NCBI GenBank assembly: GCA_012518685.1
Contig: JAAYRQ010000125.1
Coordinates: 1 to 64,000 of the forward strand
Source of the DNA: Syntrophomonadaceae bacterium
GTDB lineage: Bacteria > Bacillota > Syntrophomonadia > Syntrophomonadales > Syntrophomonadaceae
DNA: 64,000 bases
Direction: 5' to 3'
Position 1 is the stretch's first letter; each line of letters opens with the position of its first letter. Below are positions 28,092 to 54,176 of this stretch, in pieces. Position numbers and translations under genes: made by a program. The notes under the pieces were generated by a model, which was not told the DNA's origin, did not search any database, and saw only the letters and a list, made by a program, of their open reading frames with translations.

Positions 28092-28154
28092 TCACCTTGC
28101 GATAAGTATTAACTTTATAGCATGGGCGATGGTAAAGTTTTTAAGGAGTACTAT

Positions 28155-29051
28155 ATGGATTTATCTATTTTTTCACATGAACTTAATATAAGAAAAAAAC
28201 TTATAGAGGATAATTTAGTTAAATGCATAAATATTAATGCTCATCCACCCTCTATTCATGCTGCTATGGAATATGCCCTATTAAATGGTGGCAAAAGGAT
28301 AAGGCCGATTATGGTTTTAGAAGGGGCGAAGTTGGCGGGTATTGATTATAAAAAGATTCTACCAACTGCTTGTGCACTGGAGTTAATACATACTTATTCT
28401 CTAGTGCATGATGACTTACCCGCTATGGATAATGATGAATTACGCAGGGGTAAACCGACCTGTCATATAGAATATGGAGAAGATATAGCTATATTAACTG
28501 GGGATGCACTACTTACTTTGGCTTTTGAGTTATTAGCCAGTAATAGTCAAGTGGTGGGGATAAATAATCTCAATGTAGTTAAGGTTATAAGCGAAGTTGC
28601 GAATGCAGCAGGGAGCCAAGGTATGATTGGTGGACAAGTAATCGACTTGGCTTCTGAAGGTAAAAGCATTGATTACGATAGCTTGCTTAATTTACATAGT
28701 CTTAAAACTGGTAAATTATTTGAGGCTTCCTTAGTTTCTGGAGCAATTTTAGGGGATATGGGTGAAGAAGATATTAAAAAATTAAGAAACTATGCTTATC
28801 ATTATGGTTTGGCCTTTCAAATAACTGATGATATTTTAGATGTAACTGGAGATGTAAGCAAAGTTGGCAAGCCTATAGGCAGTGATGAAAAAAATTTCAA
28901 AACTACTTATCCTACTTTGTTTGGTATAGAAAAATCTAAAGAATTAGCTAAGGTGAATATAGATAAGTGCATTGATAACCTTAATAGTTTTGGTGAAAAG
29001 GCAGATTTTTTAAAAAGTTTGGCAATATATACTTTATTAAGAAACAATTAA
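28155..29051 (+). CDS. ispA: polyprenyl synthetase (farnesyl or geranylgeranyl diphosphate synthase type)
   Basis: The enzyme condenses isopentenyl diphosphate with allylic diphosphates. The 298-aa product has both Asp-rich motifs, H-D-D-L-P-A-M-D-N-D (first) and D-D-I-L-D-V-T-G-D (second), and G-G-K-R-I-R-P near the N-terminus. A start at ATG 28155, 6 bases after AAGGAG, is better than the upstream frame start at 28122. It sits upstream of OLE RNA, oapA and dxs, an arrangement known from OLE-containing species. Confidence 0.92.
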   Translation: MDLSIFSHELNIRKKLIEDNLVKCININAHPPSIHAAMEYALLNGGKRIRPIMVLEGAKLAGIDYKKILPTACALELIHTYSLVHDDLPAMDNDELRRGKPTCHIEYGEDIAILTGDALLTLAFELLASNSQVVGINNLNVVKVISEVANAAGSQGMIGGQVIDLASEGKSIDYDSLLNLHSLKTGKLFEASLVSGAILGDMGEEDIKKLRNYAYHYGLAFQITDDILDVTGDVSKVGKPIGSDEKNFKTTYPTLFGIEKSKELAKVNIDKCIDNLNSFGEKADFLKSLAIYTLLRNN

Positions 29052-29112
29052 TATTATAATTAAACTAGAACTAATTTTAGAAACTATGTTATAATTACTA
29101 TCTGATAAGAAT

Positions 29113-29690
29113 GCTGGCAAAAGGTTGCAGTATTCTAGTCAACTCTATTGATGTCGAAGACGGGCCTAAAAATCCGTTAAGGGCACATCGATGAAGCTTT
29201 TGGTAGCGGCTTCTGACGCCCAGTTAGGGGTCCTTGCTGGAAGTTAAGGGTAATGGGGCAATCCGCAAAGGCATGCGGGCATGACCCCCTTATCCGTGGA
29301 GGCTCTCTTTGCTTTGGTAAAGGGAGAAAACCTGCATTTGGTGCAAGCTGGGTGCAGTGTAGCCTGCCTTGCGTGGAGACGGCGAATGAGCGTAGGGGGC
29401 ATTACTATCTCGGCCAAGATAGTAACGGCCTGCTCTGAAACCGTATTCTGCAAAAGAGGCTAGACATTGATGTGAGTTGTTGAGGAAAACTCCTAGACTG
29501 TGTGTAGAAATACGCGGTTTGTCGGGGATTAAAGTGTGTACTAAGTGGTAGTCCAGCCTTGCTTTCGGTAACGGAGCAAAGCAAACATAAAGGGAAACCG
29601 CCCATTTGGTAACATTTGGGGGATTTGCTGGGAAAACCTGCTGGACCTAAGTCGCAGTGTTTACTCGATGAACAACCTTTTGCCAGAACT
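29113..29690 (+). ncRNA. OLE RNA (ornate, large, extremophilic)
   Basis: About 660 bases between ispA and the next gene hold no plausible protein but are visibly richer in G and C than the flanks. CTGGCAAAAGGTTG (29114-29127) is perfectly complementary to CAACCTTTTGCCAG (29673-29686), so the ends of a roughly 575-nt RNA pair. The size, the terminal helix, the position in an xseA-xseB-ispA-[RNA]-oapA-dxs-tlyA-nadK-argR-recN series and the membrane protein gene right after it fit OLE RNA, which forms a membrane-bound ribonucleoprotein with OapA. Many internal stems are present, for example ACTATC-ggccaa-GATAGT near 29404-29423. A TATAAT at 29090-29095 could be a local promoter, but its -35 is weak, so the RNA may be processed from the operon message. 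Exact ends are estimates. Confidence 0.9.
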
Positions 29691-29722
29691 GATTATTTTT
29701 TATCTAAGGGGATATAGCAACT

Positions 29723-30295
29723 TTGTTTAGCTATATAAAAAAAGAAAATTTAATATCTGGATTATTAGTAGCCTTTTTAACATTTTTTATTGCCTTGTTT
29801 GTGAGCTTAGGCTCCGAGGCTTTAGTGCGTGCAGTAAATAGTGTTTTATTGGCTATTGTTTTATTGTTGGGTATAATATTTTTAGGAATATTTTTTGATA
29901 TTATAGGAACTGCTGCTACTGCTGCAAAATTGCCGCCTTTTAATGCTAAGGCGGCAAAAAAAATATATGGGGCAAAACAAGCTGTTAAAATTACTATTAA
30001 TGCGGATAAGGTAGCTAATTTTTGTAATGATGTAATTGGTGATGTGGCAGGTACTTTAAGTGGGGCCATTGGTGCAGGAATTGTAATCAGCCTAGTTAAT
30101 TCTTTTAATTTACTTGACATAGTCTTATTAGGAGCGGTGATGACAAGCTTAATAGCTGCCCTAACAGTAGGCGGAAAAGCCATTGGTAAAAAAATCGCTA
30201 TTAATAAAGCTAATAATATTATTTTAAGGGTAGGAATTATCTTAGCCTGGATTGAAAAAATTACTGGTAAAGAATTGTTTGAGAATAGAAGGTGA
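29723..30295 (+). CDS. oapA: OLE-associated protein A
   Basis: This 190-aa protein has about four membrane helices (roughly residues 12-30, 36-60, 115-135 and 140-160) and a basic segment between the second and third (P-F-N-A-K-A-A-K-K-I-Y-G-A-K-Q-A-V-K), as expected for a membrane protein that binds RNA. Its size and position right after the OLE RNA and before dxs match OapA, which tethers OLE RNA to the membrane. The start is TTG at 29723, 11 bases after AAGGGG. The family call rests mainly on context and topology. Confidence 0.82.
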   Translation: MFSYIKKENLISGLLVAFLTFFIALFVSLGSEALVRAVNSVLLAIVLLLGIIFLGIFFDIIGTAATAAKLPPFNAKAAKKIYGAKQAVKITINADKVANFCNDVIGDVAGTLSGAIGAGIVISLVNSFNLLDIVLLGAVMTSLIAALTVGGKAIGKKIAINKANNIILRVGIILAWIEKITGKELFENRR

Positions 30296-30302
30296 AACAG
30301 AT

Positions 30303-32210
30303 TTGATTTTAGATAGAATAGACTCACCAAAAGAATTAAAAAAACTATCCTTTGCAGAATTAACCGTTTTAGCAAACGAAATTAGGCAGTTATTAGTTGC
30401 TAGTGTTTCACAATGTGGTGGACATTTAGCTGCTAACTTGGGAGTAGTCGAATTAACAATAGCCTTACATAAGGTGTTTGATTTGCCTAATGATAAAATA
30501 ATATGGGATGTAGGACACCAAAGTTATGTCCACAAAATTTTGACAGGCCGTAAAGATAAAATGGATTCCTTAAGACAATACGGGGGGCTTAGTGGATTTC
30601 CCAAGTATGAGGAATCGATTTATGATGCCTTTAATACTGGACATAGTTCTACTTCTATATCTGCAGCCTTAGGTTTTGCCCTAGCGAGAGATATTAATAA
30701 TGATGATTACAAGGTAATTGCAGTGATTGGTGATGGTGCTCTAACTGGAGGTATGGCTTTTGAAGCGTTAAATCATGCGGGACATACTAGTAGTGACTTA
30801 ATAGTCATCTTAAATGATAATGAAATGTCTATTTCTAAAAATGTCGGAGCTATGTCTAGTTATTTGAATCGCTTAAGAACTGACCCTTCTTATGCTAGGA
30901 CTAAAGATGATATAGAACAACTTTTGCAAAAAATCCCTGGAATTGGTCCTAATATCTTAAGGGCAGCTGGTCGCTTTAAAAATACGGTAAAATATATAAT
31001 GGTACCTGGTACTTTATTTGAGGAATTAGGCTTTACTTATATAGGTCCTGTGAATGGACATAATCTTGAAGAACTTAATTTAGTCTTATCTAATGCTAAG
31101 AAAATGAAAGGACCCATACTAATCCATACTATTACCCAAAAAGGCAAAGGGTATGAACCAGCTTTGTTAAACCCCGATATTTTTCATGGGGTAGGACCCT
31201 TTGATATTGATACTGGTAGCCAAGTTAAAAAACCGATTAAGACTTATACCGAATTATTTGGTGAGTTTATGGTGAATAAAGCCCTAGAAGATAAAAAGCT
31301 GGTAGCGATTACTGCCGCGATGACTAGTGGTACAGGCTTAAGCGAATTTGCAAATAAGTTTCCTCATAGATTTTTTGATGTAGGTATATGTGAACAGCAT
31401 GCTGTGACTATGTCAGCAGCTATGGCCAGAGCAGGTTTAAAACCTGTAGTTGCTATATATTCAACTTTTTTACAAAGAGCCTATGATCAATTAATCCATG
31501 ATGTAGCATTGCAGAATTTACCAGTAATTTTTGCCTTGGATAGGGCTGGCTTAGTAGGAGATGATGGGCCTACACATCATGGAGTTTTCGATATTTCTTA
31601 TTTAAGGAGTATTCCCAACTTTACCATAATGGCACCAGCTAATGAGAATGAACTTTTAGATATGTTACATACCTCATTCTATATTGGTGGACCTGTAGCT
31701 ATAAGGTGGCCTAGGGGTGTCGGTGAAGGTGTGCAAATTAATAGTAGCAGAAATACTTTGGATATAGGTAAAATAAAAAGGATAAAAGATGGTGACAATT
31801 TAGCCATTATAGCAGTGGGTAGGGGGGTAAGTATAGCAATTGAAGTAGCTAAGTTACTAAAACAGGCTAGTATAGAAGCAGAAGTAATAGATGCTAGGTA
31901 TATTAAGCCCTTGGATAATGACGGCATTTTAGAAACAGCCAGCAAGGCCAGTTATATTATTACGATTGAAGATAACCTGCTAATGGCGGGGTTTGGTAGC
32001 AGTGTGGTAGAATTGCTTTCGGACTATAATGTAAATGTTAAAGTTCATAGGGTAGGGATTCCCGATGAATTTGTTGAGCATGGAAAAATAGATATACTGT
32101 ATGATTTTTTAGGCATGGATGCTAAATCGATTGTGGAATCTATTAGCACTAAATGGCCTGAACTTTTCGGATCATACTCTTGGGAGTTGCTGAAGTTTGG
32201 AAAAAACTAG
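30303..32210 (+). CDS. dxs: 1-deoxy-D-xylulose-5-phosphate synthase
   Basis: Dxs condenses pyruvate and glyceraldehyde 3-phosphate in the first step of the MEP isoprenoid pathway. The 635-aa product has the conserved G-H-Q-S-Y-V-H-K-I-L-T-G-R, the thiamine diphosphate motif G-D-G-A-L-T-G-G-M-A-F-E-A-L-N, E-Q-H-A-V-T and the C-terminal transketolase domain. The start at TTG 30303, about 8 bases after AAGGTG, gives the normal length; the frame is open further upstream into oapA. It lies in the same operon as ispA. Confidence 0.95.
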   Translation: MILDRIDSPKELKKLSFAELTVLANEIRQLLVASVSQCGGHLAANLGVVELTIALHKVFDLPNDKIIWDVGHQSYVHKILTGRKDKMDSLRQYGGLSGFPKYEESIYDAFNTGHSSTSISAALGFALARDINNDDYKVIAVIGDGALTGGMAFEALNHAGHTSSDLIVILNDNEMSISKNVGAMSSYLNRLRTDPSYARTKDDIEQLLQKIPGIGPNILRAAGRFKNTVKYIMVPGTLFEELGFTYIGPVNGHNLEELNLVLSNAKKMKGPILIHTITQKGKGYEPALLNPDIFHGVGPFDIDTGSQVKKPIKTYTELFGEFMVNKALEDKKLVAITAAMTSGTGLSEFANKFPHRFFDVGICEQHAVTMSAAMARAGLKPVVAIYSTFLQRAYDQLIHDVALQNLPVIFALDRAGLVGDDGPTHHGVFDISYLRSIPNFTIMAPANENELLDMLHTSFYIGGPVAIRWPRGVGEGVQINSSRNTLDIGKIKRIKDGDNLAIIAVGRGVSIAIEVAKLLKQASIEAEVIDARYIKPLDNDGILETASKASYIITIEDNLLMAGFGSSVVELLSDYNVNVKVHRVGIPDEFVEHGKIDILYDFLGMDAKSIVESISTKWPELFGSYSWELLKFGKN

Positions 32211-53843: not shown

Positions 53844-54176
53844 ATGGCTAGTTTTACTACTGGACCTATAAGTAGTAGTAGTGATATAGATACCATTAGG
53901 ATTGAAGTACTTAATAATACTTCATCGCGTAAAACTTCGTCAGTTAGACTTTATGATTTATCTTTTACCCCCAAAAGAAGAATCGTAAGTCAGAGCTTGT
54001 CCTTAGCTGCTTACGCTACAGCAACTATTGATGTTCCTGCGGCAACTATAGAGCGATGGGAAGCTCAGGTTACTGCCCCTAGTACAAGTGTGAGGCTATG
54101 GGCAGGGGGAAGAAGTGGAGGAAGAAATTTAGCTGGGAATACTATAATTAATTCCGAATGGATTCAATATGAGTAA
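53844..54176 (+). CDS. unrecognised Ser/Thr-rich protein at the sporulation locus
   Basis: This 110-aa protein is rich in Ser, Thr and Ala, without membrane segment or signal peptide, and looks like a beta-rich domain: S-D-I-D-T-I-R-I-E-V-L-N-N-T, then S-V-R-L-Y-D-L-S, A-T-I-D-V-P-A-A-T-I and W-I-Q-Y-E at the end. I do not recognise a family; composition suggests a spore-surface protein. CATAATA at 53821-53827 matches the sigma-G -10 element, but the nearest GCATA is 20 bases upstream instead of 17-18. ATG has AGGAAGGG upstream, and a terminator follows, so it is a single-gene unit. Confidence 0.7.
   Translation: MASFTTGPISSSSDIDTIRIEVLNNTSSRKTSSVRLYDLSFTPKRRIVSQSLSLAAYATATIDVPAATIERWEAQVTAPSTSVRLWAGGRSGGRNLAGNTIINSEWIQYE

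What the first reader, a model, noticed from the sequence alone, without database searches (positions are those of the whole stretch)
29113..30295. OLE RNA with its partner gene oapA in an isoprenoid/repair operon
A roughly 575-nt structured RNA, with perfectly complementary 14-base ends, lies between ispA and a four-helix membrane protein gene that precedes dxs. This is the known OLE arrangement. OLE is one of the largest, most elaborate bacterial RNAs, and its biochemical role is still not resolved. Each new natural sequence adds covariation data, and a sporulating AT-rich anaerobe is a useful host.
Basis: partly seen in the sequence, partly recalled or inferred. Interest (0 to 1): 0.85.

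Follow-up and report, generated by a model that had tools for sequence, protein, structure and literature searches.

The report
An ordinary OLE RNA with oapA
This is a complete, typical copy of the known OLE noncoding RNA with its membrane-protein partner gene, in a Syntrophomonas-family anaerobe; it confirms what is known rather than revealing something new.

Summary
The Rfam OLE model (RF01071) matches window 29106-29695 (+) over its full length, 471.8 bits, E 2.5e-135, the only Rfam hit in the window. The complementary 14-base ends are exact (29114-29127 / 29673-29686) and form the P1 helix, which covaries across relatives although Rfam's structure leaves it unpaired. A conserved extended -10 box (TGTTATAAT, 29087-29095) precedes the RNA, so it probably has its own promoter inside the operon. 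oapA (29723-30295) encodes a 20-kDa, four-span, DxxxD protein of the OapA kind. OapB (between map and infA) and OapC/YbxF (between rpoC and rpsL) are in the same genome. In 54 Syntrophomonadaceae genomes, ole and oapA occur together or not at all, once contig ends are allowed for. Two side results are of modest interest: ole and oapA lie on different contigs in three draft MAGs, and the CCUCC anti-Shine-Dalgarno mimic reported to bind bS21 in H. halodurans is almost absent from this family's OLE P6. The biochemical role of OLE is still open, and this copy adds no decisive clue. Verdict: a new member of a known, well-studied class.

The parts
29087..29095 (+). extended -10 promoter element TGTTATAAT of the ole gene
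   Evidence: TGnTATAAT with at most one change in 46 of 53 OLE upstream regions (some from near-identical species), against 3.8% of control windows; not picked by the generic scanner because the -35 is weak
29114..29127 (+). 5' strand of terminal helix P1
   Evidence: 14 of 14 bases pair with 29673-29686
29106..29695 (+). OLE RNA (ole), Rfam match; likely RNA about 29103-29690
   Evidence: RF01071 471.8 bits, full length
29187..29196 (+). J4a/5 k-turn strand AUCGAUGAAG (proposed OapC site)
   Evidence: matches the OLE consensus exactly; site from PMC9723947 and PMC12286853
29294..29302 (+). J6/7 strand CCGUGGAGG (partner of the k-turn in the cryo-EM model)
   Evidence: matches the consensus
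29410..29417 (+). L9.3 loop UCGGCCAA with the GGCC palindrome of the dimer kissing loop
   Evidence: role of the loop from PMC12286853
29608..29613 (+). GGUAAC of the P13 hairpin loop, region bound by OapB in H. halodurans
   Evidence: assignment to P13 by position in the Rfam alignment (inference)
29673..29686 (+). 3' strand of terminal helix P1
29723..30295 (+). oapA, 190 aa membrane protein, TTG start
   Evidence: 38 relatives in genome collection, DxxxD at D103/D107 invariant, hydropathy
28122..29051 (+). ispA (polyprenyl synthase), upstream neighbour
30303..32210 (+). dxs, downstream neighbour; probable ribosome-binding site overlaps the oapA stop

Best explanation
The region encodes a full-length OLE RNA and its partner OapA in an anaerobe of the Syntrophomonas family. 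The RNA is transcribed from its own extended -10 promoter just after ispA, and probably also as part of the ispA-ole-oapA-dxs operon. It closes on itself with the P1 helix and dimerises through domain 1, including the GGCC loop of P9. It is held at the membrane by an OapA dimer and is loaded with OapB (P13) and OapC (k-turn at P5). By analogy with H. halodurans the complex adapts the cell to cold, alcohol, Mg2+ and energy stress. Shown here: the RNA sequence and structure, P1 covariation, the conserved promoter motif, OapA, and the genes for OapB and OapC. Inferred from work in other species: dimer, membrane location, protein binding, stress role. The chemistry that OLE performs, if any, is unknown in every species.
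For: RNA; P1: 6-7 of the first seven pairs formed in 42 of 43 distinct sequences, against 9% of swapped strands, with two-sided changes at several pairs; promoter motif; OapA, synteny; OapB, OapC; ole and oapA share presence across 54 family genomes; GGCC loop.
Against: No expression, localisation or binding data for this organism. bS21, a reported partner in H. halodurans, was not found in this assembly, but its usual neighbours (HIT protein, YqeY) were not found either, which points to an assembly gap; those two searches had no positive control. The bS21-binding CCUCC motif is not kept in P6.
Confidence: 0.96

Rival explanations
1. A degenerate OLE relic that no longer makes a working complex.
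For: Small genome (1.93 Mb) and a score below the best near relatives (471.8 against 501.8 bits).
Against: Full-length match, perfect P1, conserved dimer loop and k-turn strands, intact oapA, and oapB and oapC present. The score is in the normal family range of 434-509 bits.
Confidence: 0.02
2. A long structured leader that regulates oapA/dxs in cis rather than a free-standing RNA.
For: It lies directly upstream of oapA in the same operon.
Against: ole keeps its sequence and structure where oapA is on another contig, in three draft genomes. OLE is known as an abundant, separately detectable RNA in H. halodurans (PMC9723947).
Confidence: 0.02

Closest known systems
OLE RNA (Rfam RF01071), full-length type
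   Same: Whole model matched, terminal helix, dimer loop, k-turn strands, ispA/oapA/dxs neighbourhood.
   Different: Nothing essential. The hairpin at model positions about 197-245 is shorter, and P6 has CCCCCUUAUCC where the Rfam consensus carries CCUCC (the ASD mimic reported for H. halodurans).
OapA (OLE-associated protein A)
   Same: Four main hydrophobic spans, basic loop between spans 2 and 3, DxxxD (D103, D107), 20 kDa, next to ole.
   Different: No difference found. It has no Pfam match at E 0.001 and no NCBIfam match.
CNNM/MpfA Mg2+ exporters (PF01595)
   Same: OapA homologues of relatives match PF01595 weakly (E about 1e-4 to 1e-7).
   Different: No CBS or CorC domains; has DxxxD, which CNNM domains lack (PMC11332333). 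No CNNM match at all in this genome.

Membership tests
OLE RNA (RF01071) | Significant match to the covariance model over its whole length | tested here: met
   471.8 bits, cut-off 50, model 1-616
OLE RNA (RF01071) | Full-length type (P7, P8, long P9 and P13 loop present) rather than variant 1 or 2 | tested here: met
   Helices aligned; P9.3 with GGCC loop and GGUAAC loops present; variants defined in PMC11332333
OLE RNA (RF01071) | Terminal P1 helix supported by covariation | tested here: met
   P1 is named in PMC12265935 though Rfam leaves the ends unpaired
OLE RNA (RF01071) | Co-occurrence with oapA | tested here: met
   Adjacent here; 44 of 54 family genomes have both, 6 neither, 4 have oapA only, in each case within about 200 bases of a contig end
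OLE RNA (RF01071) | OapB and OapC genes in the genome (common, not universal) | tested here: met
   OapB G000:C6:7431-7694 (-); OapC L040:1504-1752 (-)
OLE RNA (RF01071) | Homodimer formation (P9 kissing loop, L4 A-A pairs, L5/L6 contacts) | tested here: inconclusive
   GGCC palindrome present; the dimer itself cannot be tested here
OLE RNA (RF01071) | bS21 site: CCUCC anti-Shine-Dalgarno mimic in P6 (reported for H. halodurans; not a defining feature of the class) | tested here: not met
   Absent here and in all but one of the 37 distinct regions extracted (PMC12054373)
OLE RNA (RF01071) | Abundant, membrane-bound transcript of about 600 nt | not testable with these tools
   Needs RNA
OapA | Four-span membrane protein with DxxxD motif | tested here: met
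   motif defined in PMC11332333

The most novel reading that the evidence does not exclude
OLE complexes of the Syntrophomonas family work without the sequence-specific bS21 contact described in H. halodurans, so the translation link would be a feature of some lineages only.
Probability: 0.25. Interest if true: 0.4.

Novelty: new member of a known kind. Interest (0 to 1): 0.2.

Why it matters
OLE is among the largest bacterial RNAs without a known biochemical role. This copy is one more canonical sequence. Its family gives useful comparative material: a long P1 helix, a conserved dedicated promoter motif, ole and oapA genes that stay together in presence but can part in position, and near-absence of the bS21 sequence motif.

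Tried and rejected
1) Apparent oapA without OLE (L021, L023, L030, L036): OLE is elsewhere in each genome, so these are unlinked genes or, in G004, a second OapA copy, not orphans. 2) Loss of bS21 in this genome: bS21 is in 50 of 54 family members, and its neighbours HIT and YqeY were not found here either, so an assembly gap is likelier. 3) Linking bS21 loss to loss of the P6 CCUCC motif: the motif is missing in nearly all relatives, most of which have bS21. 4) OLE and MpfA excluding each other within the family: not seen; many OLE genomes also carry a full CNNM protein, though this genome has none. 5) An intrinsic terminator after ole: none found. 6) The generic KOW model missed OapB; it was found by position and by comparison with the PDB.

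Full report
Observation. The Rfam scan of the whole window gave one hit, OLE (RF01071), at 29106-29695 on the + strand, 471.8 bits, E 2.5e-135, over the whole model. It is the only OLE in the 1.93-Mb assembly. The stretch folds far better than shuffled sequence, z -7.25.

Terminal helix. Rfam's structure leaves both ends single-stranded. Across 43 distinct sequences, 42 form 6 or 7 of the seven innermost pairs, while strands swapped between sequences whose 5' strands differ at three or more of the seven positions reach that in 9%. Pairs change on both sides, for example A-U, G-C and C-G at pair 6. The register was chosen as the best of five offsets in both the real and the swapped test. Published work names a helix P1 at this place (PMC12265935; figures not held), so this supports the known model and shows an omission in Rfam's.

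Promoter. TGTTATAAT lies at 29087-29095, 18 bases before P1. The same extended -10 pattern (one change allowed) is found in 46 of 53 OLE upstream regions (a 54th row of the script's list is a stray match, not OLE), mostly with the TATAAT 34 to 37 bases before the GCAGUAU block in this family, against 3.8% of control windows from sequence further upstream. Some rows come from near-identical species, so they are not all independent. H. halodurans ole also has its own promoter besides the operon's (PMC9723947). No terminator-like site was found.

Partner proteins. oapA (29723-30295) has 38 relatives in the genome collection, the nearest in Syntrophomonas, and 32 of those loci carry OLE just upstream. 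The protein has four main hydrophobic stretches and a basic loop of 7 K/R against 1 acidic residue. D103 and D107 are invariant in 13 aligned sequences and give the DxxxD motif that sets OapA apart from CNNM proteins (PMC11332333); by spacing they correspond to D100 and D104, the residues changed in the H. halodurans PM1 mutant (PMC9723947). OapB is an 88-aa protein between map and infA, matching PDB 7k9b, OLE-associated protein B, at E 5.6e-8. OapC/YbxF lies between rpoC and rpsL and matches YbxF structures. The second L7Ae-type protein is in a nusA operon in the place of YlxQ.

Neighbourhood. xseA, xseB and ispA are upstream; dxs, an S4/FtsJ methyltransferase, an NAD-kinase-like gene, an rRNA-methylase-like gene, argR, recN, spoIVB and spo0A are downstream (the names of xseA, the NAD kinase, recN and spo0A are from reading the sequence, the rest from Pfam). 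This is the usual OLE setting of isoprenoid, repair and sporulation genes (PMC12265935). ArgR is an unpublished candidate OLE partner according to that paper.

Family survey. Among 54 Syntrophomonadaceae genomes, 44 have OLE and 48 have OapA. The four with OapA only (G027, G029, G055, G056) have oapA within about 200 bases of a contig end on the side where ole would lie; six have neither; none has OLE alone (for G027 see the clipped locus L008). This agrees with published near-perfect co-occurrence (PMC11332333). CNNM proteins of full size are common among OLE carriers here, so the published anticorrelation is not strong inside this family; this genome has none.

Unlinked genes. In two MAGs of one genus of the family (G001/G026 and G002/G025), ole still follows ispA but oapA is on another contig, in G001 beside unrelated genes. 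In G003 (Peptococcaceae) ole likewise has no oapA in the 1.5 kb after it, and the oapA found is on another contig. In G004 an OapA-like protein does follow ole (L045 2164-2922), so the distant copy in L036 may be a second paralogue. These are draft MAGs.

bS21. In H. halodurans bS21 binds a CCUCC anti-Shine-Dalgarno mimic in P6 (PMC12054373). The motif is missing here and in all but one of 37 distinct regions extracted, although 50 of 54 family genomes have bS21. My pattern failed to extract P6 from several loci and one extracted region (L035) is not P6, so the count is approximate. The paper itself reports that the complex keeps some functions without bS21. The absence of bS21 in this assembly is probably a gap, since the neighbouring genes were not found either.

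Verdict. A canonical, full-length OLE RNA with OapA, OapB and OapC: a new member of a known kind, low in surprise.

Noticed in passing
L021, L023 (oapA) and L043, L042 (ole): ole and oapA lie on different contigs in two Syntrophomonadaceae MAGs of one genus; ole stays after ispA.
   Followed up: partly
L045 2164-2922 and L036 2501-2998: A Clostridia MAG (G004) appears to hold two OapA-like proteins, one right after ole and one elsewhere.
   Followed up: no
L044 1501-2079: In a Peptococcaceae MAG (G003) ole has no oapA just after it; a Spo0A-like gene follows it.
   Followed up: no
window 29247-29302 (OLE P6 region): The CCUCC mimic of the 16S tail reported to bind bS21 is absent in nearly all OLE RNAs of this family.
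   Followed up: partly
whole assembly G000: bS21, HIT and YqeY were not found; likely one missing stretch of the assembly.
   Followed up: partly
window 53844-54176: A 110-aa open frame with no family assigned, between thymidine-phosphorylase-like and D-Ala-D-Ala-carboxypeptidase-like genes; not examined.
   Followed up: no
window 29114-29127 and 29673-29686: The Rfam RF01071 consensus structure leaves the covarying terminal P1 helix unpaired.
   Followed up: yes
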